Shown here: piece after piece, positions 12,546 through 25,029 of the stretch
Position numbering within the stretch: the stretch's first letter is position 1
How the letters are laid out: each line of letters opens with the position of its first letter
Assembly: GCA_013044385.1 (NCBI GenBank)
Contig: JABEUN010000082.1
Span: 1 to 33,062, forward strand
Origin: Acidimicrobiaceae bacterium
Lineage (GTDB): Bacteria; Actinomycetota; Acidimicrobiia; Acidimicrobiales; Acidimicrobiaceae
DNA length: 33,062 nucleotides
Reading direction: 5' to 3'
Made by a program: the position numbers and the translations under genes
Notes under the pieces: model-generated
What the model was told of the DNA's origin: nothing
What the model saw: only the letters and a program-made list of their open reading frames with translations
Database searches by the model: none

Positions 12546-14810
12546 TCAGGCCTGCAGCCGCTGCCTGATTACGTTCAGTGCGCCACCCGCCTTGAACCAC
12601 TCGATGTGCTCTTCGGACATAGTGTGCGTTGCTTGAAAGTGGTCCTGGCTACCGTCTGGGTGGGTCAGCACACATTCGACGGGACGTCCGGGCTCGAGTT
12701 CTGAAAGTCCTACCACGCTGAACTTGTCGTCTCTTTCGATCAGGTCGTAGCTCGCAGGGTCCGAGAAGGTCAGCGGAAGAATACCCTGCTTTTTCAGATT
12801 CGTCTCGTGAATCCTTGCAAACGATCTTGCGATGATCGCCTTGGCGCCCGCATAGCGGGGTTCCATCGCCGCATGTTCCCTCGAGGATCCCTCGCCGTAG
12901 TTCTCATCTCCAACTGCAATCCACGCGACGCCAGCTACTCGGTAGTGCTCCGCGATGTCAGGCAGTGACTCTTCCTGGTTGTGAATCTGGCAGTAACCCG
13001 TACCCGGCTTGGAGCCGAAGGCGTTGATGACGCCCAGGAAGAGGTTCTTGGAGATGTTCCGGAGGTGGCCACGGTACTTGAGCCATGGTCCAGCTGCTGA
13101 GATGTGATCGGTGGTGCACTTTCCGACCGCCTTCATAAGCACAGTCAGATCGATGAAATCCTTCCCATCCCATGTGCTGAATGGTTCTAGTAGGTGAAGT
13201 CTTTCAGATGCGGGGTCCACCTCGATGACGACCGACGAGCCGTCTGCAGGTGGAAGCTGGAAGCCGGACTCTCCGGACTCGAAGCCTTGATTAGGAAGCT
13301 CCTCGCCAATCGGTGCGTCGAGTTTTACTCCATCGATGGAATCCGTGAGTGGATTGAAGTCCAACGTGCCAGCCAAAGCGTATGCTACGACGATCTCTGG
13401 TGACCCGATGAAGGAGAGTGTGGCGGCGTTGCCGTCATTTCGCTTTGGGAAGTTGCGGTTGTAGGAGCTGAGGATGGAGTTCGACTGACCGTCTTGGATG
13501 TCGTTTCTCTTCCACTGACCGATACATGGCCCACATGCGTTGGCTAGAACCGTTGCCCCGATCGCCTCAAGATCCTGCAGAAGGCCGTCCCGCTCGATAG
13601 TTGCCCTGACTCTCTCAGAACCGGGAGTAACCAGAAGCGGAACCTTGGCGACGAGCCCCTTTGCCTTTGCCTGTCGAGCGATGTGTGCAGCCCTAGTGAT
13701 GTCTTCATAGGAGGAGTTGGTGCAGGAACCGACCAGACACGACGAAAGCACTAGTGGCCAGGCGTTATCTTTGGCATCGGCACCCATATTCGACACCGGC
13801 CTCGAACGATCGGGAGTGTGTGGGCCTACGATGTGTGGCTCTAGGTTATCCAGGTCGATCTCGATCACCCTGTCGAAGTACGAAGACGGATCTGCCTCCA
13901 CCTCAGCATCGGCCTGCAGGTGGTGTAGATTCGCCATGGCCAGATCTGCGAGAGCCTCCCGGCCCGTCGATTTCAGGTATGCCGCCCCATGATCATCGAA
14001 GGGGAAGATGGAGCAGGTGGCACCTATCTCAGCACCCATGTTGCAGATAGTGGCCTTACCGGTTGCAGAGATGGCACGTGCGCCTGATCCGAAGTACTCG
14101 ACTATCGCGCCGGTTCCTCCCTTTACGGTTAGGATCTCGGCCACCTTCAGAATGATGTCCTTTGGCGCCGTCCAACCCTTGAGGGTTCCCTTCAGATGCA
14201 CACCGATAACTTTGGGATACCTCACGCCGAACGTGGATCCAACCATGACGTCGACGGCATCGGCGCCGCCTACACCAATTGCGGCCATTCCCAGTCCACC
14301 AGCGTTTGGCGTGTGGCTGTCGGTGCCGATCATCAGCCCACCGGGGAATGCGTACTGCTCAAGAACTACTTGGTGGATGATGCCCGAACCCGGCTTCCAG
14401 AATCCGATCCCGTACTTGGCCGAAACCGTCCTAAGGAAGTCGTAGACCTCCTTGTTTGTGACCTCAGCCGACTCGAGGTCTGTGTCAGCGCCGAACTGTG
14501 CCTGAATCAGGTGGTCACAGTGCACGGTGGAGGGAACCGCGACGCTTTTCAGGCCCGCAGTCATGAACTGAAGAAGTGCCATCTGGGCAGTGGCATCCTG
14601 CATGGCTACCCGATCTGGATAGAGTTCGGCGTAGGCGACTCCACGTTCGAGGTCCTGGTTCTCGGGGTCCGCAAGATGGGAGATCAGGATCTTCTCGGCG
14701 AGAGTCAGGGGACGACCTAGTCTCTTTCGGCCGATCGGGACGGCTCTGTCGAATTTGGAGTACACACCTTGTACCAACTCAAGTGGGGTTCCGGCACTGC
14801 TGGTTTCCAT
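12546..14810 (-). CDS. acn: Aconitate hydratase, mitochondrial type
   Basis: The protein has 754 residues, the usual length for the mitochondrial-type subfamily. It isomerises citrate to isocitrate in the TCA cycle. The [4Fe-4S] ligands C363 (LVGSCTNSSYED), C426 and C429 (ANACGPCIGQW) correspond to C358, C421 and C424 of the mammalian enzyme. Other signatures are GTDSHTPNAGGLG near residue 172 and, in the swivel domain, GDENYGEGSSREHAAMEPR and RSFARIHETNLKKQG. The ATG at 14808-14810 is chosen because the conserved domain begins soon after and GAAGGGA lies upstream; an earlier ATG at 14960 would add 50 residues unlike the family. It diverges from a GntR regulator, a possible controller. Confidence 0.95.
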   Translation of the reverse strand: METSSAGTPLELVQGVYSKFDRAVPIGRKRLGRPLTLAEKILISHLADPENQDLERGVAYAELYPDRVAMQDATAQMALLQFMTAGLKSVAVPSTVHCDHLIQAQFGADTDLESAEVTNKEVYDFLRTVSAKYGIGFWKPGSGIIHQVVLEQYAFPGGLMIGTDSHTPNAGGLGMAAIGVGGADAVDVMVGSTFGVRYPKVIGVHLKGTLKGWTAPKDIILKVAEILTVKGGTGAIVEYFGSGARAISATGKATICNMGAEIGATCSIFPFDDHGAAYLKSTGREALADLAMANLHHLQADAEVEADPSSYFDRVIEIDLDNLEPHIVGPHTPDRSRPVSNMGADAKDNAWPLVLSSCLVGSCTNSSYEDITRAAHIARQAKAKGLVAKVPLLVTPGSERVRATIERDGLLQDLEAIGATVLANACGPCIGQWKRNDIQDGQSNSILSSYNRNFPKRNDGNAATLSFIGSPEIVVAYALAGTLDFNPLTDSIDGVKLDAPIGEELPNQGFESGESGFQLPPADGSSVVIEVDPASERLHLLEPFSTWDGKDFIDLTVLMKAVGKCTTDHISAAGPWLKYRGHLRNISKNLFLGVINAFGSKPGTGYCQIHNQEESLPDIAEHYRVAGVAWIAVGDENYGEGSSREHAAMEPRYAGAKAIIARSFARIHETNLKKQGILPLTFSDPASYDLIERDDKFSVVGLSELEPGRPVECVLTHPDGSQDHFQATHTMSEEHIEWFKAGGALNVIRQRLQA

Positions 14811-14890
14811 ATACTGATTCCCTTCAGACTCTCGCTCGGCGGGCCGGGCGCTCAACTCATACTCTGTTAGTAAAACTTCCTTTGGCCCAA

Positions 14891-14920
14891 TTGTAACTAG
14901 GCATCTTCTAAAGATATAAT
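14891..14920 (+). promoter_or_regulatory. Sigma-70-type promoter of the GntR gene, probably leaderless
   Basis: TTGTAA (14891-14896) is separated by 18 bases from a perfect TATAAT (14915-14920). Transcription should start about 7 bases later, at or next to the ATA at 14927-14929, which is the inferred first codon of the GntR gene. The box overlaps the leader region of the divergent aconitase gene, so the regulator may control both. Confidence 0.6.
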
Positions 14921-14926
14921 ACAAGT

Positions 14927-15685
14927 ATAAGACAGGTTCGGGACCCAAGATACATTTCAATAGCTAGTGAGCTTCGGCGCCAGATCTCTGAAGGGAGATT
15001 GGGGGCCGGTGAACTTCTCCCGTCCGAATCCACCCTTTCGAGGACCTACGAGGCCAGTCGGATAACTGTCCGGAAGGCTTTGGAGCTGTTACGCAAGGAC
15101 GGGATTGTCGAGTCCAGACAGGGGTTCGGCTGGTTCGTTGTCTTCAAGCCGGTAGAGCAGTCACTCGGCAGGTTTTCGACGATCGAGGATCAGCTCGGTG
15201 AGATCGGAGTCGTCCCGCGCCGACAGATCCTGAATTCGAAGAAGGTAAAAGCCGAAGGTCGAATCCTCGAAGTACTTGGTGGAGGTGAGATCCTGGAGGT
15301 TACTCGACTTAATCTGGCCGACGGTGTTCCTTTTGCGAGGGTCACCGTGTGGATCCCGGCGTTTCTGGCAGACACATTTTCGATACGGGACTTCGAGGAG
15401 AGGTCCTTTTATCAGCTGCTATCCGAAAGCGACAGCTTGAGGCGCCCATTGTCACATGCGACACAGACAATAGCGGCCGTCGCCATGCCCGAGGTCGATG
15501 CAAAGTTGTTGGGAGTCCCTGCAGGTTCGCCCGCACTGGAGTGCGAGAGGATAACTTTCGATGACTCCGACTATCCGATTCTCCTGTCGGCCTCGATCTT
15601 TCCGGGCAACAAGACCCTCTTTGTAACCGAACTGACATCCCAGGTCGGCTCGATCGCCCCGACCGGTCTCAGGCTGGTCGAGTAG
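14927..15685 (+). CDS. GntR-family (HutC subfamily) transcriptional regulator
   Basis: The N-terminal winged helix-turn-helix reads ...YISIASELRRQISEGRL, GAGELLPSESTLSRTYEASR, ITVRKALELLRKDGIVESRQ and GFGWFV. It is followed by a UTRA effector domain of about 150 residues (EVLGGGEILEVTRLNLADGV, ECERITFDDSDYPI). The first canonical start in frame is TTG at 14999, which would delete helix 1 of the DNA-binding domain. The missing residues (RQVRDPRYISIASELRRQ) are encoded in frame upstream, and the frame can begin at ATA (14927-14929), six bases after TATAAT. I therefore propose an ATA start on a leaderless mRNA, giving 252 residues. It diverges from aconitase; ligand unknown. Confidence 0.88.
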   Translation: MRQVRDPRYISIASELRRQISEGRLGAGELLPSESTLSRTYEASRITVRKALELLRKDGIVESRQGFGWFVVFKPVEQSLGRFSTIEDQLGEIGVVPRRQILNSKKVKAEGRILEVLGGGEILEVTRLNLADGVPFARVTVWIPAFLADTFSIRDFEERSFYQLLSESDSLRRPLSHATQTIAAVAMPEVDAKLLGVPAGSPALECERITFDDSDYPILLSASIFPGNKTLFVTELTSQVGSIAPTGLRLVE

Positions 15686-15739: not shown

Positions 15740-16660
15740 TCAGCGTTGGATCAACCTCTGGGGCCACCCCGTCCGTTTGGAGTCTCTGGATACCGAGAGT
15801 CCCGATCTGTCCCACAGCTCTATCCAGCCGCGCCGACTCGGTTGGAGGCTCGGAGTACCGCCAGAGTGTGCATTTCGTGCAGCTTGAAGAAAATCGGTAT
15901 GAAACTCGTCTGCTAGGCGATCGACCGCCCGCTGCAGTTCTATTGTGACCTCTCTGGGATCGCGTCCATCGTTGGCAGAGATTGGTGAGCCATAGCTGGC
16001 CATGACAGTACCGGGCTTGAATCTCTTGTCGTTCTTGTTCAGAATGTCATAAGTTCCCTCTAGATAGATTGGAACTATCGGTGCTCCGGTTTTCTGGGCA
16101 AGAAGGGCCACGCCACCCCTGAACTCCTGTCCTAAGCCGTCCGGACTGCGACCGCCTTCTGGAAAGATCAACAAGCTCCATCCGTCCCGAATTAGGCCGC
16201 TTGCCAAGTCCGCTGACCTTCGGCCAGCCCTGTTTCGTTCAATCGGGATTGCAGACAGAAGTCCCGACCAGAGCGCAGCCTTCCACCGTTTGTCGAAGAA
16301 GTAGTCAGCTCCTGCGCCGACGACGCAACGGTGGCGGAAGCGGTCGGGCAGGATTGAGAGCATGACTGCGGTGTCTATGTGGCTGGAGTGGTTTACAGCG
16401 AAGATCACAGGACCACTCAGTCCATCAATCCTGTCGACGTTCCTCGTGTCAGGCTTGGCTACAAGTTGGATGGCTGGCCTGACGACGCTATCGATGACCA
16501 TTGCCCGGATCAGCCTTACTGGATACTTCCTTGACCACGCTGTGTCATAGTTCGAACCGAGCTTGGACTTGATCCGCTCGTCGGGGAGTGTCGTTGGCCG
16601 TGTGGGCCTGTTTGTCAAGAAGGAAAGCGTTCTGCTTTTGGGTATCTTCATCTGGGTCAC
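15740..16660 (-). CDS. PlsC-like lysophospholipid (1-acylglycerol-3-phosphate) acyltransferase
   Basis: The protein has 306 residues with the PlsC/LPLAT fold. Motif I is FAVNHSSHIDTAVML (H-x4-D) near residue 90. An Arg-containing motif II is seen in SAIPIERNRAG, motif III in LLIFPEGGRSPDG and motif IV in APIVPIYLEGT. It should transfer an acyl group from acyl-CoA or acyl-ACP to a lysophospholipid or related alcohol at the membrane. It is the last gene of a minus-strand operon, starting 3 bases after the stop of the LarA-like gene at a GTG (16658-16660); an ATG three codons later is an alternative. The context suggests it esterifies a product of the upstream reductase and dehydrogenase. Confidence 0.88.
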   Translation of the reverse strand: MTQMKIPKSRTLSFLTNRPTRPTTLPDERIKSKLGSNYDTAWSRKYPVRLIRAMVIDSVVRPAIQLVAKPDTRNVDRIDGLSGPVIFAVNHSSHIDTAVMLSILPDRFRHRCVVGAGADYFFDKRWKAALWSGLLSAIPIERNRAGRRSADLASGLIRDGWSLLIFPEGGRSPDGLGQEFRGGVALLAQKTGAPIVPIYLEGTYDILNKNDKRFKPGTVMASYGSPISANDGRDPREVTIELQRAVDRLADEFHTDFLQAARNAHSGGTPSLQPSRRGWIELWDRSGLSVSRDSKRTGWPQRLIQR

Positions 16661-16663
16661 CGA

Positions 16664-18253
16664 TCAGTGGACGTTTGCCATCAAGAGGGGAGGCGAGTGG
16701 AGATGGGTCAACGTGGGGTCACGGCCGACGATCGACTTCGCCATCTCTATTGCATCTGCCATCGTGGATGCTGGCGTATATCCGAGCCTTCTCGTCGTCT
16801 TGGGGTCTCCGCCAAGTATGATCACTCCGCCTAGGTGGTCGAGTGCATGGGCGCCCCAGTACCACATGTAAAACGGGTGCACTCCGTGGTAGGCGTGTCC
16901 CTTGCGATAGAGGTGTATATACCACGGGTCAGTGGCATATCGTTCCTCGTACTTTGCCTCTATCTTGAGCGGGTCTGTGGTGTCTGCGAGAACCTCATCG
17001 AAGAAGTCGATGTAGCTGGGGTGGAAAGTAGGGTCGAACTCGGGTCTGGTCGGGTGTGAAAGGATGACCACCCCGCCTTTGCGCACCAGCGGTTGACCTC
17101 GGTACATGTTGAAGAAGTATCCGAGGCCGAGGCAGTGGACGAGAATCGGATTCATGACCGAGTTCACGTTGTATGGTCCGATGAACGGAAGGCCGATGGT
17201 GAGTATGTCGGTCTGTCCCTCGACGTCCACAGACTGCTGCCGATAGACATTCTCCAACGTTCTTTTGTGGACGGCCTCCACCTCTCCGGCCTGGACGCTG
17301 GTCAATTTGTACGGAGACCTAACTGAGTGGAAGATCTTTCTTGCCGCCCAAGGTGGCGTTCGCTTGAGGGACTCAGACGCCCCAACGAACGACGCCCGGT
17401 CCTTTAGTCCCCACTCCCACTCCCGCTTCTGGAGGAATTCGAAGGCCGGTGGGAAGGTGTCGGTATTAAGTGTGGTCTCAATCTGGAATATCTTGATGCC
17501 GGAGTCGCGTAGGAGCTTTCCCATGCGCCAGTTCGAGGAGTGGAGTTCTGAATTTTTGTGGTCCATGAAGGATTTCGAGTGCACCATCGTCTTGACATTG
17601 TGGTGGTGCTTGAGTGAGCGATAGCTCGATAGACCGGTGGCAACCGATTTGTGGCCGCCATCCATCGATACGAGATTGATATTCACGTAGATGATCAGAT
17701 CGGCCGTTGCTGCGTACTTGTTGATCTCGACGGTTTCGCCCATATCGGTCTCACCGATCAACATCAGATTGTCTGGATCCTCTGCGTCGTGCTGGGTCAG
17801 AATCCCCGCCGTGGAGGTGGCGTCGTAGACCCTGTTGCCAAGTGCGTGTCTCAGCTCGGAGTTAGTCATCCTCCGGTGCAGCGCAAGTGCGGCGATTAGC
17901 TTAACATCCTCTACGCCGGCGCGTGCTACCCGCTCGAGGACCTCCTCGATGATCATCTGCCGAATATCTGGTGCCTGCATCTGGGGGAGCGGAAGCGACA
18001 CATCGTCGAAGCACACCGCTACACGCAGTCCTGGCCGCAGAAGCGAATCAAGTGGTTCCGAGTCGCCAAGTGGAGCGTCAAGAGCAGCCGCGATGGCAGC
18101 CCTTGGGTCCTTGATCCCGTCCATCGGCTCTGGTGGATAGATGATTCGTGAGCCAGTCGGAAGCCTCTCAAGCCGGAAGTTTTCGCCGTGCCAGAAGAGG
18201 GTCGGCGGAGTCGACTTATCGACCTCCAGTACGAAGCCCGGTCTTGGGCTCAT
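16664..18253 (-). CDS. LarA-like (lactate racemase/DUF2088 domain) protein
   Basis: The protein has 529 residues. The N-terminal half contains LarA-family signatures: VAVCFDDVSLPLPQ, ALALHRRMTNSELRHALGNR (the active-site His region of lactate racemase), and VSMDGGHKSVATGLSSYRS, whose Lys matches the position that carries the nickel-pincer nucleotide in LarA; HHHN follows. The C-terminal half is longer than in lactate racemase and unassigned. Known members are nickel-pincer racemases or epimerases of 2-hydroxy acids. No larB, larC or larE maturation gene is in the window, so cofactor use is inference. The start overlaps the dehydrogenase stop by 4 bases (ATGA), indicating translational coupling in the operon. 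Confidence 0.75.
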   Translation of the reverse strand: MSPRPGFVLEVDKSTPPTLFWHGENFRLERLPTGSRIIYPPEPMDGIKDPRAAIAAALDAPLGDSEPLDSLLRPGLRVAVCFDDVSLPLPQMQAPDIRQMIIEEVLERVARAGVEDVKLIAALALHRRMTNSELRHALGNRVYDATSTAGILTQHDAEDPDNLMLIGETDMGETVEINKYAATADLIIYVNINLVSMDGGHKSVATGLSSYRSLKHHHNVKTMVHSKSFMDHKNSELHSSNWRMGKLLRDSGIKIFQIETTLNTDTFPPAFEFLQKREWEWGLKDRASFVGASESLKRTPPWAARKIFHSVRSPYKLTSVQAGEVEAVHKRTLENVYRQQSVDVEGQTDILTIGLPFIGPYNVNSVMNPILVHCLGLGYFFNMYRGQPLVRKGGVVILSHPTRPEFDPTFHPSYIDFFDEVLADTTDPLKIEAKYEERYATDPWYIHLYRKGHAYHGVHPFYMWYWGAHALDHLGGVIILGGDPKTTRRLGYTPASTMADAIEMAKSIVGRDPTLTHLHSPPLLMANVH

Positions 18254-19503
18254 CTGCGATTCTCCTGTTCTCTCGCCCGTCTTGGGCGCGGATCGAATGC
18301 GATTTTGATGGCGCCCCTCTGTCCAGCTTCAGCGGCCAATCGGATCGCCTCCTCGTAGTTTTCGAGGCCATACCTATGGGTGACCAAGGCTCCGAGCTTC
18401 AGTCGCTGTGCCATGGAGATAGCCAGATCGAACGTCCGTATTCCATTTTCTGTGACGATCGAGCCAGTTTGGGCCTCTGCTGAGATATACCCGCTGGTTG
18501 ATTCGGTTTGCTCTTCAGTGCCGTATGCGTAACTTCCGACCAGCTTGATCTCTCTATGCCATAGCGGTGCAAGATCGATGCTCATATTAGATGGCATCCC
18601 CGAGACCACCACAGTTCCGCCAGGTGTTGTAGATGCGATGGCTTCTGTGACAGAGGACTCAGAGCCAACGCAGTCGAAGACGGCATCGAATCCTTGGGAC
18701 TGCCAGTTCCCGACCGACATGGCAGATGTGCTGCTTCTTGCGGTCCTGACAAGCTGTTTGGGCTCGACGACCAAGTCGGCCCCGAGCCTCATTGCCATCG
18801 AGCGCTGATGGGAGTATTTGGCAGCGCAGGTGATCCTTATGCCCGGATGTAGCTGTCTTAGCGCAGCGACGGTCAAAAGACCGATGGTTCCAGCTCCTAG
18901 AACTGCGACCGAATGGACGTTATTCGAATCGAGTCGCAAAACACTGTGGATAGCGCAGGCGAGTGGTTCTATCATGACGGCATCCTCGTCGGAAAGGCCA
19001 TCAGGAACTAGGTGGAGTTGAGACCGGTGGGCCGAAAACTCCTCCGACCAACCGCCACCGACCGACGTGCAGTAGCCGGTCTGGATTCCAGGCTCGATGC
19101 TGCCATCGAGGATCCGCTCACACCTCTGGGTCTGGCCCAGCCTGCACCATCTGCAGGCAGGTAGGCCCCTTATTCTGCAGTGAAGAGCCGGTTCGATCAC
19201 GACCCGAGATGAGACACCATCAATGATGGCATCGGCGACGACTTCATGTCCCGGAGTAAATGGGAAGCTCGTCAGAGGTTCGAAGTATCGCGAACTTCTA
19301 CCCAAAACAGCAGACACGTCTGAGCCACAGATTCCAGACAGGCGCGGCCGGACCGAAATCCACTCTTCGTTGGGGAGCGGAAGCGGATCATGTTCGTCCA
19401 GTTTCAAAGGACCGAACATGATGGCCTTCTGCTTTGACGCAGCCGAAAGCACCTTTGCGGCTGCAAATCTCCTTAACTTCTCCTCGACTACTAGAGCCTT
19501 CAT
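18250..19503 (-). CDS. Zinc-dependent medium-chain alcohol dehydrogenase
   Basis: The protein has 417 residues. The catalytic zinc region is LSGICGSDVSAVL and PFTPGHEVVADA. The structural-zinc lobe holds Cys in ALHCRIRGLPACRWCRLGQT followed by QRCE. The Rossmann motif is VAVLGAGTIGLLTVAA, and VFDCVGSESSVTEAI and GGTVVVSGMP follow as in other NAD(P)-dependent MDR enzymes. An N-terminal extension of about 25 residues before KAIMFGPLKL is unusual. It should interconvert an alcohol and an aldehyde or ketone. The start codon overlaps the stop of the reductase-HAD gene by 4 bases and its own stop overlaps the LarA-like start by 4, so it sits inside a coupled operon. Confidence 0.88.
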   Translation of the reverse strand: MKALVVEEKLRRFAAAKVLSAASKQKAIMFGPLKLDEHDPLPLPNEEWISVRPRLSGICGSDVSAVLGRSSRYFEPLTSFPFTPGHEVVADAIIDGVSSRVVIEPALHCRIRGLPACRWCRLGQTQRCERILDGSIEPGIQTGYCTSVGGGWSEEFSAHRSQLHLVPDGLSDEDAVMIEPLACAIHSVLRLDSNNVHSVAVLGAGTIGLLTVAALRQLHPGIRITCAAKYSHQRSMAMRLGADLVVEPKQLVRTARSSTSAMSVGNWQSQGFDAVFDCVGSESSVTEAIASTTPGGTVVVSGMPSNMSIDLAPLWHREIKLVGSYAYGTEEQTESTSGYISAEAQTGSIVTENGIRTFDLAISMAQRLKLGALVTHRYGLENYEEAIRLAAEAGQRGAIKIAFDPRPRRAREQENRR

Positions 19504-21824
19504 CTGCCGCTCCCGATGGGCAGGTGGAGTGGGTAGCCGCCTTTTGCCCGTTCCCAGTTCTCAGTATGCCAACCCCGTCGATTGGCAATCTGGAGCAGCT
19601 TGGTCTCTGGATTCACACACACCGCCTGACCGGCCGCCTCGAGCATGGGTAGATCAGAGGTGGAGTCTGCGTAGGCGATCGTATCGGACCTGTCGATCCC
19701 GAACTCTTCGGCGAGTTCGAGCATTACAGCTGCACGGTTCTCGCCTATAGGAGGTGCACCGAGAAGTTGTCCCGTCAGTCGACCTTTGGAGTCCACTTCC
19801 ATCTCGCATGCGACTACCTTGTCGAACATTGGCGCGAGCGGTGCGACAACGAACTCCAAGGCGCCAGTGATCAGTACTGTCTTGTGACCCGCTCGCCGGT
19901 GATTCCTCACCCGCTGTAGACCCTGTGGGAAGGACCTCTTCAGTAGGTACTCGTCGAACAGATCGAATGCGATCTTCTCGAGTTCGGCCCGATCGGCCCC
20001 TTTGTATCTGCGGTAGAAGTGTCGGAGAAAATCTGTCCTGTCCCGCCTGTCGAGTGCCAACAGGCGAGGTGCTTCAGCTAGTAGACCCGCAGCGAGGGTC
20101 GCCTTCTCCATCTTTTCGATCTGGGAGGTCGCTAACCAGGTGAATGAGTCGACGACATTTGCAGCAAGCAGTGTGTTCTCGAGGTCGAAGGCTGCCATCT
20201 TGTTCCCTGGCGCCAGCAGTCCCGCAAGTGTCCGCTCCCTCTTGGTGGTGCCGGTCTTTTTGGCCGTTGTCGTCTTCACTCTTGAGTGTTCCACGATGGA
20301 GGGTAGGTGGACGTTTGAGACGAAACGGTCCCAATCGATCTGGATGGGATCGAAGTCGAACTCTTCGAGGTCTTTTTGATCCAAAGTGCTGCGCAGATCG
20401 GCCAACCTACCTACCTGATAGATGGCCTCGGTCTCTGCGTATGCGCCGTAAAGTTCCACGTACCCAAGTGCACGCTTTGCGATCTCCCGCTTTTCGGAGA
20501 TGTCCGATGCAAGGTTGTTCTGCCTAGAGCGGATCGGCAGTCTGGACATTACGGCTTCGGATGCGGCCAACACCTGATTCGCCCTGCGGAGCTGGCCTTG
20601 GACTTTGCCCCGACCGGGGAAGTTCCAAGCTGGAACGTTTATCGGCTGCCCCTTAGTGTCGATCAGGGGGTTCTCGCCGAAGTATGTCCGGACCAGATTG
20701 ACCAGCTGTCCATACTTAAGTGGGTTGGATGATCCCGATGCGACGTGGTAGAAGGTCATCTCGTTGGGTGGTGGCTGTGCGGCAGCTGCGATAATCGCAG
20801 AGACGACGAGGTCGACCGGAATCACATCGACCGTGCCTTCAGGCACGCCTGGAAACTCCTTGAGCAGTCCCCGTGCGAACGAAATGATGATCGGCTCTGC
20901 CATTCTGAATCCCCTGATCCAGCCGGGGTAGGGGTGGCTAAGTGCGGATTCGATGATGGAGGGTCTGACCACTGATACGGGCAGGTCTCCCCGATTTTCT
21001 TCGAGGGCAATCTCGCCCAGAGCCTTGGAGTAGGCATAAGCATCGGCCCAACCGAGGCTGGTTGCACGTGCCTGACCGAGCTCTACCATCTGAGCCTTCA
21101 CCCAGTCGTTTCTTCTTTTTTCGGTCTCGTCGGCCATGATCGCCACACCGGCCGCACCGAACTCTCGGTGTGCTTCACTCTGAAATCCGGCGAGCCGCTC
21201 TTTGGTCCTGCTCTGAAGCTCGACATCTTTACGTAGGCTTCTGCCAGCGTCGACCTCCTTCTCCCATGCGATTTCGGGATACAGGTCGGACTGCTTCAAG
21301 GACTCTTCGAACGCTTTTCCGCGTCGGGAGCCAGCTACGTAGGCTGTAGACACCGTGACGAGGTGGCCGGACCTGCCAGCGGCGACCAGGGCGGACCGAT
21401 AAGCAGTGGCAACCCTGCTCGGGCCCAGCAGGTTTACTTCTATGGCTGAATCGAGCGGAGCGTCGAAACTGACGGTGGCTGCTGAGTGGATCGCTACGTC
21501 GCAGCTGCCGAGGAGTTTTGTCGATTCGGCATCCAGTCCGAGGCCATCTCTGCCTACGTCTCCTGGGACCGCTGTAATTCTTCTGCTGACCATCTCCTCG
21601 AACTGCTCGCGGCCGAGGGATTCCCGAAGGCTGTCGAAGCAGTTGTTGCGGAGGATCTCCTTTTTTACCCGCTCGGTGGCGGTAGTTCTACGCCCGGGCC
21701 TTACAAGCAGCACCAGTTCGGTGTCTGGAAGTGAGTGAAGTATCCGCTCGATCAGCGCCGTACCTACGAAACCGGTGCCTCCAGTGAGGAATATGCGCTT
21801 CCCAGACAGAAAATCTCTTATCAA
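19500..21824 (-). CDS. Fusion of a fatty acyl-CoA reductase-like SDR and a HAD-IB phosphatase
   Basis: The protein has 774 residues in two parts. Residues 1-510 are an extended SDR of the male-sterility/thioester-reductase type, with GGTGFVG at 15-21, IHSAATVSF, S159 in VTVSTAYVAG and a YAYSK active site (Y263, K267); such domains reduce acyl-CoA or acyl-carrier thioesters to aldehydes or alcohols with NADPH. Residues 540-774 are a SerB-like HAD-IB hydrolase: motif I FDLENTLL (D547, with Glu549 in place of the usual second Asp), motif II LITGA, motif IV YADSTSDLPML. The start is a TTG (21822-21824) behind GAGGG. It heads the operon with the dehydrogenase, LarA-like and acyltransferase genes, suggesting lipid or fatty-alcohol synthesis. 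Confidence 0.85.
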   Translation of the reverse strand: MIRDFLSGKRIFLTGGTGFVGTALIERILHSLPDTELVLLVRPGRRTTATERVKKEILRNNCFDSLRESLGREQFEEMVSRRITAVPGDVGRDGLGLDAESTKLLGSCDVAIHSAATVSFDAPLDSAIEVNLLGPSRVATAYRSALVAAGRSGHLVTVSTAYVAGSRRGKAFEESLKQSDLYPEIAWEKEVDAGRSLRKDVELQSRTKERLAGFQSEAHREFGAAGVAIMADETEKRRNDWVKAQMVELGQARATSLGWADAYAYSKALGEIALEENRGDLPVSVVRPSIIESALSHPYPGWIRGFRMAEPIIISFARGLLKEFPGVPEGTVDVIPVDLVVSAIIAAAAQPPPNEMTFYHVASGSSNPLKYGQLVNLVRTYFGENPLIDTKGQPINVPAWNFPGRGKVQGQLRRANQVLAASEAVMSRLPIRSRQNNLASDISEKREIAKRALGYVELYGAYAETEAIYQVGRLADLRSTLDQKDLEEFDFDPIQIDWDRFVSNVHLPSIVEHSRVKTTTAKKTGTTKRERTLAGLLAPGNKMAAFDLENTLLAANVVDSFTWLATSQIEKMEKATLAAGLLAEAPRLLALDRRDRTDFLRHFYRRYKGADRAELEKIAFDLFDEYLLKRSFPQGLQRVRNHRRAGHKTVLITGALEFVVAPLAPMFDKVVACEMEVDSKGRLTGQLLGAPPIGENRAAVMLELAEEFGIDRSDTIAYADSTSDLPMLEAAGQAVCVNPETKLLQIANRRGWHTENWERAKGGYPLHLPIGSGR

Positions 21825-21899: not shown

Positions 21900-22385
21900 C
21901 TACTTGGATTTGCTCCGGGACTTGACGTTGATGGCATTAGCTGGCGGAGTGTAGCGCTTCGAAGGTTTGGGCACACTCTTTCCTCCGGGCGTCGTAGTCG
22001 GTTGGTACTTGCCCTGACTGCGGAGTTCACGCTTATGTGCGACAGCCTCCCGACGGGCCTTGATGGCGGCAGGATCCTTCTTGAAGAGTACGAAAGAGCC
22101 GTAGGCGAGCACCGGAAGGGGGAGCACTACGTACTTGCCCCAAGGTCCGAATGCGACCAGAATCATAAGTACTGCGGTGAGTATCCTGTTCTTCCGGAGT
22201 ATCCCGAAGCCGGCTATCAGGATCAGGGCGAGACCCTCTGCGAGGTAGAGTTTGGGATTCGAGTGGTTCTTCTTTGCCGCCGCTGAACTTATCTGCGGGA
22301 CCCAGAGGATCGCGATCGCTATCGCAGAGTACAGAAGGATCGCTAAGCCGACCCTCTGCTCCTTCGTTGAGAGTGGAGTCTTCAC
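21900..22385 (-). CDS. Small membrane protein with basic C-terminal tail, unknown function
   Basis: The protein has 161 residues. About four hydrophobic segments are visible: GLAILLYSAIAIAILWVP, LYLAEGLALILIAGFGIL, ILTAVLMILVAFGPWG and VVLPLPVLAYGSFVLF. They are followed by a cytoplasmic-looking, strongly basic tail rich in Lys, Arg, Pro and Ser (KARREAVAHKRELRSQGKY ... NVKSRSKSK). No enzymatic motif was recognised; similar short proteins with Lys/Arg tails occur in actinobacteria as uncharacterised membrane proteins. The start is a GTG with no clear ribosome-binding site. It lies between the lipid operon and the GGDEF gene on the same strand, with 75 bases to the former. Confidence 0.7.
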   Translation of the reverse strand: MKTPLSTKEQRVGLAILLYSAIAIAILWVPQISSAAAKKNHSNPKLYLAEGLALILIAGFGILRKNRILTAVLMILVAFGPWGKYVVLPLPVLAYGSFVLFKKDPAAIKARREAVAHKRELRSQGKYQPTTTPGGKSVPKPSKRYTPPANAINVKSRSKSK

Positions 22386-22500: not shown

Positions 22501-25029
22501 TCAGGAGTAGGTGAATGTGAGTTTGAGGGACCTTCCTATGATGCCGACGGTGTCCACGAGGGTTCGGTTGGACATCTGGCTGCCTCGGAGATGTAGAAAC
22601 TCGGGCCTCATATCCAATAGCCAAGTGAGGTTCAAGAGATCTTCTGTATCTCCGCCGACCATGATCTTGGTCCCTGTTGTCAATCTTAGGCTGCGTAGAG
22701 CCTTGTTGGCCGAGTCGCTGGCATTGGTTAGGTCACCTGCATCGAAGGAGAGAACCATGTTGGAGGGTGTGACCCCGCTTGTCTTCGATATGTCTGAGAT
22801 AACTTTTGCGGTGAGCACCGTCCCGAATAGGTCCTCAGTGATCATCGGTATTACGAGTCTGGTGGGTTGTTCGCAGTCGGTCGAAGATGCGGAGACCGTC
22901 TCGTTCTCGTCAACTGGTGGCGGGGGTCGTAGTCCACTGTCTTTCCCTAGTTGTGTACACGCGTACCCCCAGAGCTGGTGTCTCAACGAAGAGGTCCAGG
23001 TCCTTTTATGGTCGGCAAGAATGTTCTGATCGACCTGTCCACCCGGATCTGTCACGTATAGGGTCCTGAAGCTCTGCTTTTTGGTCCCGGAAAGTTCGAA
23101 AAGCGTTGGGGTGCCATCTACGATCGACACCTGCAACGTGGACAGTTTGAGTTCGATGGAGCTGTCCTGAGGTTCCACGTCGTGACTTACCGACTTCCGA
23201 TACAGCTCGATGGTGGTGGATCGGTTGACCTTCGCACGATACATCGCTGTGTCTGCGTGGTTGAGAAGCTGATCTATTGCAGCCTCGGGCTCTGCGTCGA
23301 GTGATGAGTCCGATAGCGCTAGTCCTATTGAGGCCGTTAGGTCGAGTGACAGGTCGCCGATCTCGACAGTTCTGGACATCGATGATAGAACTCGCTGGCA
23401 GACCGCTTGGGCGTGGTTCTCACTCTCGATGTCGATGAGCAGAGCCGCGAACTCGTCGCCGCTGAGCCTCGCTGCAGTGTCTACCGACCGGAAGGCCTCG
23501 GAAAATCTCCGAGCGACTTCCACAAGGAGCTTGTCCCCGACTTCATGTCCATATAGATCGTTCACGAGTTTGAAGTTGTTTACGTCGAGGAAGGCAATTG
23601 CAATTCGGCTTCCGGCTCGTCGGGACTGAATCAGTGCTTGCTTGGCTCTGTCTAAGAAGACTTCCCGGTTAGGGAGGTGGGTCAAGCGGTCCGTGGTCGC
23701 TTTGAGCTCAAGCTCACTGAGGATGCTGCTCTGACGAATCGTGCTCGCTCGTTCCTTGATGACCAATTCGACCGTCGCTGCAATCTCATCGAGCTGCTCC
23801 CGTTCGAACTCGGACCAGTGGAAGCGGTTGGGTGACAGTCCAAAGTTGATGAAGCACTTGAGGGCCTGATCCGAAGTGATGTTGAAGTCGGCGGTTGTAA
23901 CTGCCTGAATCGAGTTGAACGACGGATCTACCAGCTCTGAAGGTCCTGAGTTGTGGCTTGCATCGACGAATCGTGCTCCGGCTGTAGGAACACTTGAGTC
24001 AGCCAGTTGCCTTTTGAGTCTCAGCTCGAAGTAGGAGGAGTCAAGGGGATCTCCGGCTACTGAGATCGCCGTGCCAACGAGGGACTGGGCGGCCACGTCG
24101 CCACCTCTGTCGATAATGGCTACGTAGCAGTATGAACTTGACACCACGTTGTGGAACGAGCTAGCGATCTCGGCCGCCAGTTCGTGAACGTCGACGGCAT
24201 CTTTCGATGCCTTCATAAGACGCTTAAGTGAGACGTACAGTCGCTCGGAGACTTTTGACCGGTAACTGAGCCTGATCCGGCTCGATGCCACTTCGAGCGG
24301 GCGTTCAAGTGCATCTAGGAATCCGTCGTTTAGTTGCGTTCTGCTGTCAGTCGCAACGATGAACGCGAGTCCCTCTTTGCGGGATCGGTCGTAGGTGAGA
24401 TAGACGCGGGCCTGCTCAAGCCAAGGGTTCGCCCTCCACCATCCGTCGAAGTCCGCTTCCTGGCTGGTCTGGTCCGCCGTCCTATAGAGGTTCCTGAACG
24501 TAGATGGCGGACTTTGCCGCTCCGCACAACTGATCAAACCACTTACAACCGCAAGCGGGATCACCGAAGTCTTGAAGTATTTGACCTCAGCCCTGCTGAG
24601 CCTTCCGTCGTAGGTGGCCCACGCGACCGGAATGGCTCCATTTTGACTGAATGAGAGGACCACAACGTTCGATAGTTCGCTCACGTGAAGGATCTGTCGG
24701 CACAGTTCTTCGATGGCGACCTCTTCGAAACCTTCGACGTTTGACTCCATGAGTGCAACACTCAATGCCCGGAGATGCTGGTCCTGGGAGAGGAAGCTGA
24801 CCTCATCGGTGGGATCAGATATGGTCTCCAACCCATCGATTGGTCTCTGGTGAAGCAGAGAAGGCGAGCCGATGATGATGGGTGGCTTTAGGTTGGAACT
24901 GTTAGGCGGTGTCGAGTTAGAGCGTTCGCCTACGTCTTCGCTGGATCCTGAAGGCTTGAATCGGCGTGTAGCGGCCCTGACCGTCTCAGGGTCTGTGATC
25001 TCCGGCTTGAGTGGGAGTGTGTCGGACAT
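22501..25029 (-). CDS. GAF-GGDEF signalling protein with degenerate EAL-like C-terminus
   Basis: The protein has 842 residues. A disordered N-terminus of about 60 residues precedes two probable GAF-type sensory regions (about 100-260 and 270-430). The GGDEF domain (about 445-605) begins TTDRLTHLPNREVFLDRA; its active-site loop is SGDEF (523-527), and an inhibitory I-site R514-x2-D517 lies five residues upstream. The first Gly replaced by Ser is tolerated in several active diguanylate cyclases, so c-di-GMP synthesis with product inhibition is plausible. Residues about 630-842 resemble an EAL domain in placement and end (ITEDLFGTV..., PEFLHLRGSQMSNRTLVDTV), but the EAL motif and metal ligands are missing, suggesting a non-catalytic binding domain. 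No transmembrane segment is seen. Confidence 0.85.
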   Translation of the reverse strand: MSDTLPLKPEITDPETVRAATRRFKPSGSSEDVGERSNSTPPNSSNLKPPIIIGSPSLLHQRPIDGLETISDPTDEVSFLSQDQHLRALSVALMESNVEGFEEVAIEELCRQILHVSELSNVVVLSFSQNGAIPVAWATYDGRLSRAEVKYFKTSVIPLAVVSGLISCAERQSPPSTFRNLYRTADQTSQEADFDGWWRANPWLEQARVYLTYDRSRKEGLAFIVATDSRTQLNDGFLDALERPLEVASSRIRLSYRSKVSERLYVSLKRLMKASKDAVDVHELAAEIASSFHNVVSSSYCYVAIIDRGGDVAAQSLVGTAISVAGDPLDSSYFELRLKRQLADSSVPTAGARFVDASHNSGPSELVDPSFNSIQAVTTADFNITSDQALKCFINFGLSPNRFHWSEFEREQLDEIAATVELVIKERASTIRQSSILSELELKATTDRLTHLPNREVFLDRAKQALIQSRRAGSRIAIAFLDVNNFKLVNDLYGHEVGDKLLVEVARRFSEAFRSVDTAARLSGDEFAALLIDIESENHAQAVCQRVLSSMSRTVEIGDLSLDLTASIGLALSDSSLDAEPEAAIDQLLNHADTAMYRAKVNRSTTIELYRKSVSHDVEPQDSSIELKLSTLQVSIVDGTPTLFELSGTKKQSFRTLYVTDPGGQVDQNILADHKRTWTSSLRHQLWGYACTQLGKDSGLRPPPPVDENETVSASSTDCEQPTRLVIPMITEDLFGTVLTAKVISDISKTSGVTPSNMVLSFDAGDLTNASDSANKALRSLRLTTGTKIMVGGDTEDLLNLTWLLDMRPEFLHLRGSQMSNRTLVDTVGIIGRSLKLTFTYS

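What the first reader, a model, noticed from the sequence alone, without database searches (positions are those of the whole stretch)
15740..21824. Coupled operon: acyl reductase-HAD fusion, alcohol dehydrogenase, LarA-like protein, PlsC-like acyltransferase
Seen: four genes with 4-base overlaps or a 3-base gap on the minus strand. Known: the domains act on acyl thioesters, alcohols, 2-hydroxy acids (LarA) and acyl transfer. Inference: an uncharacterised pathway making a fatty alcohol, hydroxy-lipid or ether-type lipid, in which the HAD domain removes a phosphate and PlsC acylates the product. The presence of a LarA-family protein in a lipid operon is unexpected and would place nickel-pincer-type chemistry in lipid metabolism.
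Basis: partly seen in the sequence, partly recalled or inferred. Interest (0 to 1): 0.62.

Follow-up and report, generated by a model that had tools for sequence, protein, structure and literature searches.

The report
Nickel-cofactor enzyme in lipid operon
A four-gene operon shared by many actinobacteria joins lipid-making enzymes to a protein built to hold a rare nickel cofactor, and it may help to make unusual ether-linked membrane lipids, a role not known for that cofactor.

Summary
In detail: four minus-strand genes at 15740-21824, two 4-base overlaps and one 3-base gap. The block is not local: 70 of 80 related loci show all four genes, the other 10 being cut by contig ends. In 396 Actinomycetota genomes this LarA type and the FAR-HAD fusion occur together in 82, one alone in 13, neither in 301. 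The LarA keeps the nickel-pincer (NPN) residues D84, H126, K202, H218, but Leu replaces the carboxylate-binding Arg and the second catalytic His is gone. It is the only LarA found in its genome, which has larB, larC and larE. Partners: alcohol-forming acyl-CoA reductase, ketose-reductase-like ADH, PlsC. An alkyl-DHAP synthase homologue lies upstream of the block in 9 of 46 genomes of the order holding both. Rubrobacter, cited as rich in ether lipids, has the block core, with no AGPS or PF09989 protein found. Best reading: an ether-lipid-type operon in which an NPN enzyme handles a backbone hydroxyl. Cofactor use is well supported; product and LarA substrate are inferred, untested.

The parts
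19500..21824 (-). Fusion of alcohol-forming fatty acyl-CoA reductase (residues 2-515) and HAD-IB hydrolase (about residues 544-742), first gene of the operon
   Evidence: PF07993 2.1e-55, PF12710 7.5e-30; best solved relative 7eoz fatty acyl-CoA reductase, query 2-515, E 1e-65; Y263 and K267 in 87 of 87 rows; HAD D547, R697, D720, D724 in 87 of 87, motif I DxE 77, DxD 10
20280..21821 (-). Acyl-CoA reductase part of the fusion
   Evidence: phmmer match to 7eoz over residues 2-515
19599..20195 (-). HAD-IB part of the fusion
   Evidence: TIGR01490 residues 544-742, 109 bits, cut-off 98.3
18250..19503 (-). Zinc-type MDR dehydrogenase, closest solved relative an NADP(H)-dependent ketose reductase
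   Evidence: PF00107, PF08240; only PDB match at E 1e-20 or better is 1e3j, E 8.5e-22; C59, H86, E87, E179 and C109, C117, C120, C128 in at least 93 of 94 rows (that these are the zinc ligands is recalled)
16664..18253 (-). LarA-like protein of the LarAH14/15/16 family, single-His class
   Evidence: NF052592 872.7 bits, cut-off 740; model pLDDT 91.2; best structural match 9q3k, Z 39.7, rmsd 2.5 over 454 residues
17648..17650 (-). Codon of K202, the expected covalent attachment site of the NPN cofactor
   Evidence: aligns with Lys195 of 9q2u and the GGxK Lys of LarA; 102 of 102 rows
17600..17602 (-). Codon of H218, the expected nickel ligand
   Evidence: aligns with His211 of 9q2u; 102 of 102 rows
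17876..17878 (-). Codon of H126, the one catalytic His kept
   Evidence: aligns with His115 of 9q2u; 102 of 102 rows
15740..16660 (-). PlsC-like acyltransferase, last gene of the operon
   Evidence: PF01553 5.8e-20; H91, D96 and P167, E168, G169 in at least 77 of 78 rows
21900..22385 (-). Small protein of unknown family just upstream, found next to the block in some relatives only; doubtful member
   Evidence: no Pfam or NCBIfam match at 0.01; homologues beside the block in part of the 80 loci

Best explanation
The block is a conserved actinobacterial lipid operon that most likely makes an O-alkyl (ether-type) glycerolipid or its alkylglycerol precursor. The FAR domain reduces a fatty acyl thioester to a fatty alcohol; PlsC (PlsY in the Rubrobacter family) acylates a glycerol-phosphate-type backbone; the ketose-reductase-like ADH reduces or oxidises a glycerone-type ketone at C2; the HAD domain may remove a phosphate. 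LarA carries the nickel-pincer nucleotide on K202 with H218 as nickel ligand and performs a hydride-transfer reaction with one acid/base (H126) on a hydroxyl group of the backbone, working with the ADH. Shown by computation: gene content, conservation, cofactor residues, cofactor genes, co-occurrence, AGPS linkage in a subset. Inferred: the product, every substrate, and the direction of each step.
For: All four genes in 70 of 80 loci, 10 cut by contig ends. FAR-HAD and LarA both/LarA only/FAR-HAD only/neither: 82/4/9/301 of 396 genomes; of the 82, 76 have both on one contig and 69 have FAR-HAD upstream on the same strand within 2.5 kb. Only LarA found in its genome, with larB, larC, larE; larB, larC and larE lie within a few kb behind PlsC in 4 of 127 loci scanned, many of them short. 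larC in 122 of 133 LarA-positive and 5 of 15 LarA-negative genomes of the order. K202, H218, H126, D84 in 102 of 102 rows. AGPS homologue in the own genome (225 bits to 2uuu) and 4 to 14 kb upstream of LarA on the same strand in 9 of 46 genomes of the order holding both, in 7 families; also in L038 and 4.4 kb upstream of FAR-HAD in G274. A Streptomyces replicon has FAR-HAD, PlsC and AGPS (386 bits to 2uuu) within 7.2 kb without LarA. ADH closest to a ketose reductase. One locus has ADH and LarA in a single 1014-codon frame (L027). Rubrobacterales, cited as having about 46% ether-linked core lipids (PMC10821996, passage seen), have the block core, while 0 of 30 genomes of that family with LarA over the cut-off are in the AGPS list at E 1e-50 and PF09989 (PlsA/Ger-type, recalled) is absent from 16 of 16 genomes searched, 8 of them of that family.
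Against: AGPS presence does not follow the block: 46 of 133 LarA-positive against 4 of 15 LarA-negative genomes of the order. Of the 46, three have AGPS on the LarA contig but far off (28 kb on the other strand, about 256 kb, about 3.8 Mb) and 34 on another contig. In the own genome AGPS is on another contig, and none of its neighbours recurs in 11 AGPS-bearing loci compared. 11 of 133 LarA-positive genomes of the order show no larC, several of them over 95% complete. No lipid data for Acidimicrobiia were found (one search). In the Rubrobacter family PlsC was not found at the block, and in 7 of its genomes FAR-HAD and LarA are 2.7 to 7.8 kb apart. Motif I of the HAD is DxE in 77 of 87. The family name at NCBI is a hydroxyacid isomerase. 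Frankia LarAH14 showed none of seven hydroxyacid activities (PMC7583248), which fits but does not prove another substrate. LarA relatives at 23-41% identity lie outside any such block (10 loci).
Confidence: 0.45

Rival explanations
1. The operon makes 2-hydroxy fatty acid or long-chain 1,2-diol lipids: LarA inverts a 2-hydroxy fatty acyl group, FAR reduces it to a 1,2-diol and PlsC acylates the diol.
For: The LarA reactions in the papers seen are on 2-hydroxy acids (PMC7583248); FAR and PlsC would fit a diol backbone (inference).
Against: The carboxylate-binding Arg is Leu in 98 of 102 rows and the second catalytic His is missing; the AGPS linkage is unexplained. No lipid data decide it.
Confidence: 0.2
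2. The operon makes plain fatty alcohols or wax-type esters for storage or surface; LarA is an auxiliary enzyme of the same regulon without a step in the pathway.
For: FAR matches a fatty acyl-CoA reductase over its full length.
Against: LarA is more conserved than its partners and sits between them, with coupled junctions in the window; it co-occurs with FAR-HAD in 82 genomes with 13 exceptions; an ADH-LarA single frame exists.
Confidence: 0.15
3. LarA does not use the NPN cofactor and has been recruited for another job.
For: Desguin 2020 (PMC7583248, section 8) excludes groups 12, 13 and 16 as lacking NPN residues; NF052592 lumps 14, 15 and 16. 11 of 133 LarA-positive genomes show no larC.
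Against: 102 of 102 block-linked rows keep Lys, Ni-His, catalytic His and Asp; the best structural match is an NPN-loaded holo enzyme; larBCE present with no other LarA found to serve and close by in 4 loci.
Confidence: 0.07
4. The association is a chance neighbourhood or assembly artefact.
For: Most genomes are metagenome assemblies.
Against: Isolates carry it too (Ferrithrix, Acidithrix; Rubrobacter); genomes in one contig carry it.
Confidence: 0.01

Closest known systems
NCBIfam NF052592, NPN-dependent hydroxyacid isomerase LarAH14/15/16
   Same: The window protein scores 872.7 bits, cut-off 740, over residues 7-528
   Different: No substrate is known for this family in the papers seen; Frankia LarAH14 was negative for seven activities (PMC7583248)
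Single-His LarA proteins of Streptococcus plurextorum and Blautia wexlerae (PDB 9q2u/9q3k, 9q3j; PMC12611868)
   Same: Closest solved relatives by profile (163.6 and 127.8 bits) and fold (Z 39.7 and 36.3); shared Lys, Ni-His, one catalytic His, Tyr307/Y361, His401/H459; no second catalytic His
   Different: Lys76 is L87 and His306 is P360 here; the loop that holds their Asn is shorter here, so its partner is uncertain; their gene context is sugar metabolism, here lipid
Eukaryotic-type ether lipid route (FAR1, GNPAT, AGPS)
   Same: FAR, an acyltransferase and, in some genomes, AGPS upstream; a ketone reductase
   Different: AGPS is not near the block in most genomes; the HAD fusion and LarA have no counterpart there
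elb cluster of Myxococcus xanthus (ElbB HAD, ElbD FAR-ACS-ACP-AGPAT, ElbE NAD-dependent; PMC9131029 passages)
   Same: FAR, HAD and AGPAT-type acyltransferase functions in one operon
   Different: No ACS or ACP domain here, FAR fused to HAD instead, plus ADH and LarA; sequences could not be compared directly

Membership tests
LarAH14/15/16 (NF052592) | Score over the curated cut-off of 740 bits | tested here: met
   872.7 bits
NPN-dependent LarA superfamily | Lys for covalent NPN, His as nickel ligand, Asp at the ribose, first catalytic His | tested here: met
   K202, H218, D84, H126 in 102 of 102 block-linked rows
Two-His 2-hydroxyacid racemase (LarA type) | Second catalytic His (His174) | tested here: not met
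   No consensus His at positions 188-200; in the two LarA alignments shown N193 stands there beside a one-residue gap, in the Mar2 and single-His alignments the position falls in an insertion
Two-His 2-hydroxyacid racemase (LarA type) | Arg75-type residue for carboxylate and NPN phosphate | tested here: not met
   L87; Leu 98, Ile 2, Cys 2 of 102
NPN-dependent LarA superfamily | Bound NPN and a turnover reaction | not testable with these tools
   needs expression with LarB/C/E
NPN pathway in the genome | larB, larC, larE | tested here: met
   each over its cut-off
Alcohol-forming fatty acyl-CoA reductase | NAD_binding_4 domain, SDR Tyr-Lys pair, full-length similarity to a solved FAR | tested here: met
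   PF07993 2.1e-55, Y263/K267 87 of 87, 7eoz residues 2-515 E 1e-65; the Sterile domain scores 27.7 bits, under its cut-off of 35.4
HAD-IB phosphatase | Motif I DxD with all four motifs | tested here: inconclusive
   D547, R697, D720, D724 in 87 of 87, but DxE in 77 of 87
FAR1/GNPAT/AGPS ether lipid pathway | AGPS homologue in the genome | tested here: met
   on another contig; linked to the block in 9 of 46 genomes of the order with both
FAR1/GNPAT/AGPS ether lipid pathway | AGPS wherever the block occurs | tested here: not met
   87 of 133 LarA-positive genomes of the order have no hit at 1e-60
elb ether lipid cluster | FAR-ACS-ACP-AGPAT multidomain protein | tested here: not met
   no ACS or ACP domain in the four proteins
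Any ether lipid pathway | Ether lipids in the organism | not testable with these tools
   no lipid data found for Acidimicrobiia; Rubrobacterales cited at about 46% ether-linked

The most novel reading that the evidence does not exclude
LarA here is the first nickel-pincer enzyme acting on a lipid and not on a 2-hydroxy carboxylic acid: it transiently oxidises the C2 hydroxyl of an acyl- or alkyl-glycerol(phosphate), either to invert the glycerol stereocentre or to open an AGPS-independent route to the ether bond, and so underlies ether lipids in Rubrobacter and in Acidimicrobiia.
Probability: 0.2. Interest if true: 0.9.

Novelty: new variant of a known kind. Interest (0 to 1): 0.64.

Why it matters
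The reactions of NPN enzymes described in the papers seen are inversions of 2-hydroxy acids. A LarA fixed inside a lipid operon, with the carboxylate-binding Arg and one catalytic His lost, gives a concrete lead to a new substrate class and reaction for this cofactor, and it offers a candidate gene set for the ether lipids of Rubrobacter, where neither an AGPS nor a PF09989 protein was found here. It also makes the orphan family LarAH14/15/16 testable with a short list of substrates.

Tried and rejected
A fifth constant gene: over 47 loci of up to 20 kb plus the window only the four block genes recur on the same strand in more than 30 loci; the next same-strand or divergent families reach 11 or fewer (shadow frames on the opposite strand left aside). 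AGPS as a fixed partner: rejected by presence counts. AGPS in Rubrobacter: of the 8 PF02913 proteins of G041, G011 and G053, 7 were compared with two AGPS proteins and score at GlcD level, 91 bits or less against 325 or more for AGPS-type ones; the eighth was not fetched. PlsA/Ger-type ether formation: PF09989 in 0 of 16 genomes; that PF09989 marks these enzymes is recalled. Block on plasmids: two LarA matches among 72,556 records, both at 25% identity or less. The gene finding by stop-to-stop frames is rough in GC-rich loci, so gene borders in relatives are approximate. Rows dropped: the LarA counts use 102 rows at 50% identity or more; the 10 rows below are told apart; hits covering under 85% of a query were left out; a few rows may be near-duplicates. 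Papers: PMC12611868, parts 1-3 of 5; PMC7583248, parts 1-2 of 6, section 8 and passages; PMC11770544, PMC11796402, PMC9131029, PMC11868695, PMC10821996, PMC11150832, PMC11129491 and PMC9426513, passages only. The Rubrobacterales lipid paper (10.1016/j.syapm.2023.126404) is not held; I saw it only as a reference and in one citing sentence, and I recall vaguely that it proposes ether lipid genes, which must be checked. Table S1 of Desguin 2020 may already list the neighbours of groups 14-16; supplements could not be opened. That no paper links LarA to a lipid operon rests on the listed rows in an open-access library; those lists were capped.
Full report
The four genes are as described. On the minus strand of the window lie, in order of transcription, an acyl reductase-HAD fusion (19500-21824), a zinc-type dehydrogenase (18250-19503), a LarA-like protein (16664-18253) and a PlsC-like acyltransferase (15740-16660). 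The first two junctions are 4-base ATGA overlaps, the third is a gap of 3 bases.

The block is a conserved unit. Their record titles are actinobacterial except two titled Acidobacteria or Acidobacteriota (L044, L084). 70 of these 80 show recognisable parts of all four genes and the other 10 end at a contig edge inside the block. In 396 genomes drawn from the phylum, 170 have a match to NF052592 at E 1e-3 and 86 pass its cut-off. A separate search with the FAR-HAD protein found 91 of the same 396 at E 1e-60. Both are present in 82, only LarA in 4, only FAR-HAD in 9, neither in 301; of the 82, 76 have both on one contig and 69 have FAR-HAD upstream on the same strand less than 2.5 kb away; the 7 others on one contig, 2.7 to 7.8 kb apart, are all of the Rubrobacter family. 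The genomes share descent, so the Fisher value overstates the evidence. Of the exceptions, four FAR-HAD-only genomes have a LarA cut short (G095, G141, G287, G309); G259, G040 and G216, 90 to 100% complete, are not so explained.

In 21 longer loci from the phylum and the order, 14 hold the four genes, one is cut before PlsC, five of the Rubrobacter family hold FAR-HAD, ADH and LarA without a PlsC hit, and one has LarA alone, its FAR-HAD being on another contig. In those five an ORF family of about 210 aa lies upstream; the two members scanned are PlsY, PF02660. Ten loci with LarA relatives at 23-41% identity (L137-L146) have no block. One locus, L027, has ADH and LarA in a single open frame of 1014 codons; it is one assembly, so it could be an error.

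The LarA protein is fit for the nickel-pincer cofactor. In 102 block-linked sequences D84, H126, K202 and H218 never vary. By the profile alignment to solved LarA proteins these are the ribose Asp, the first catalytic His, the Lys that binds NPN and the nickel ligand. Two features of ordinary LarA racemases are gone: L87 stands where Arg75 (Lys in the single-His proteins) would be, with Leu in 98 of 102, and the loop of His174 is shorter and holds no consensus His. In the two LarA alignments shown N193 (Asn in 101 of 102) stands opposite His174; in the Mar2 and single-His alignments that position falls in an insertion, so the exact replacement is uncertain. The closest solved proteins are the single-His LarA enzymes published in 2025 (163.6 and 127.8 bits against 35-57 for the others), and the AlphaFold model (pLDDT 91.2) matches the holo form 9q3k with Z 39.7 over 454 residues, against 31.0 or less for classical LarA proteins. 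That paper (PMC12611868, parts 1-3 read) assigns Arg73 of LarA-Ip to the NPN phosphate and the lactate carboxylate, so its loss argues against a simple hydroxy acid. Desguin 2020 (PMC7583248, section 8) already suggested that groups lacking His174 might do another hydride-mediated reaction, and reports that LarAH14 of Frankia showed none of seven activities.

The cofactor pathway is present and seems dedicated. The genome (2.8 Mb, 95% complete) has one LarA found, one larC and one larB side by side on contig 60 and a larE over its cut-off. In 148 genomes of the order, larC is in 122 of 133 with LarA and in 5 of 15 without; those five are 74-92% complete. Against this, 11 LarA-positive genomes show no larC, several over 95% complete. 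In L117, L119, L120 and L134 larE, larB and larC lie within a few kb behind PlsC, larE on the other strand in L117.

The partners point to ether-type lipids. The FAR part matches a fatty acyl-CoA reductase over its full length. The ADH has as its only PDB match at 1e-20 an NADP(H)-dependent ketose reductase, which is what a reduction of alkyl-DHAP or acyl-DHAP would need (inference). The own genome has a homologue of alkyl-DHAP synthase, AGPS (225 bits to 2uuu), unlinked to the block. In the order 50 of 148 genomes have it at 1e-60. Of the 46 that also have LarA, 9 (G404, G473, G434, G522, G503, G400, G382, G425, G399; 7 families) carry it on the same contig and strand, 4 to 14 kb upstream of LarA; 3 have it on the same contig but far away; 34 on another contig. 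By simple arithmetic about 0.4 would be expected within 15 kb for a random place. L038 and G274, where AGPS lies 4.4 kb upstream of a FAR-HAD on a contig other than that of LarA, add two. In some of the linked loci an MFS gene (L038, L198, L199) or a ddl gene (L200, L201) lies between. In Streptomyces sp. NBC_01450 a FAR-HAD homologue (38%) lies within 7.2 kb of a PlsC and an AGPS of 386 bits, with no LarA in the stretch. Against this, AGPS is no more common with the block than without it, 46 of 133 versus 4 of 15.

Rubrobacter is the best natural test. [quoted passage not shown] the cited paper is not held. None of the 30 genomes of that family with LarA over the cut-off appears in the AGPS list at E 1e-50, 7 of the 8 PF02913 proteins of three of them are GlcD-like, and PF09989 is absent from the 8 searched. 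So the block core is a candidate for ether formation there without AGPS. This is an inference from absence and rests on the thresholds used.

How it may work. Shown: the parts, their conservation, the cofactor residues. Inferred: FAR gives a fatty alcohol; PlsC or PlsY acylates a glycerol phosphate; the ADH acts at a C2 ketone; LarA moves a hydride at a secondary hydroxyl with H126 as its one acid/base; the HAD part may cleave a phosphate, although its second motif I Asp is Glu in 77 of 87. The elb cluster of Myxococcus, where FAR, HAD and AGPAT functions meet in an ether lipid operon of unknown chemistry (PMC9131029 passages), is the nearest analogue, but it lacks LarA and has ACS and ACP domains that are missing here. 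The LarA reactions in the papers seen are on 2-hydroxy acids, so a lipid substrate would be new. I rate the NPN use as very likely, the ether-type product as about even, and the exact LarA reaction as open.

Noticed in passing
L124:8280-8282 (-), L126:7167-7169 (-), L127:8094-8096 (-), L128:14684-14686 (+); L219 (NZ_CP090580.1): An ABC solute-binding protein gene (PF00496) near LarA in four genomes of the Rubrobacter family has an in-frame TGA at the same place (EGHW*-IDxPGPWG); an unannotated homologue in Methylobacterium radiotolerans has TGA at the same site and lies just before selB, so a selenocysteine codon is likely.
   Followed up: partly
L216 (NZ_CP109481.1:1061610-1091832): A 2.35 Mb Streptomyces replicon has FAR-HAD, PlsC and a strong AGPS homologue between transposase genes, without LarA.
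   Followed up: partly
L027:3959-7000 (+): ADH and LarA in one open frame of 1014 codons, a possible natural fusion.
   Followed up: no
L137, L139, L140, L146: A second LarA type at about 40% identity, outside the block; L137 scores 527 bits, under the NF052592 cut-off, and its loop reads N-x-N-W. In the 10 rows under 50% identity the NPN residues are kept in most.
   Followed up: no
window 12546-15685: A gene that looks like a GntR-type regulator (named by eye, not scanned) is divergent from an aconitase-like gene and convergent with the operon; this pair is kept beside the block in part of the relatives.
   Followed up: no
window 22501-25029: A GGDEF protein of 842 aa upstream of the operon; similar genes lie upstream of the block in several relatives.
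   Followed up: no
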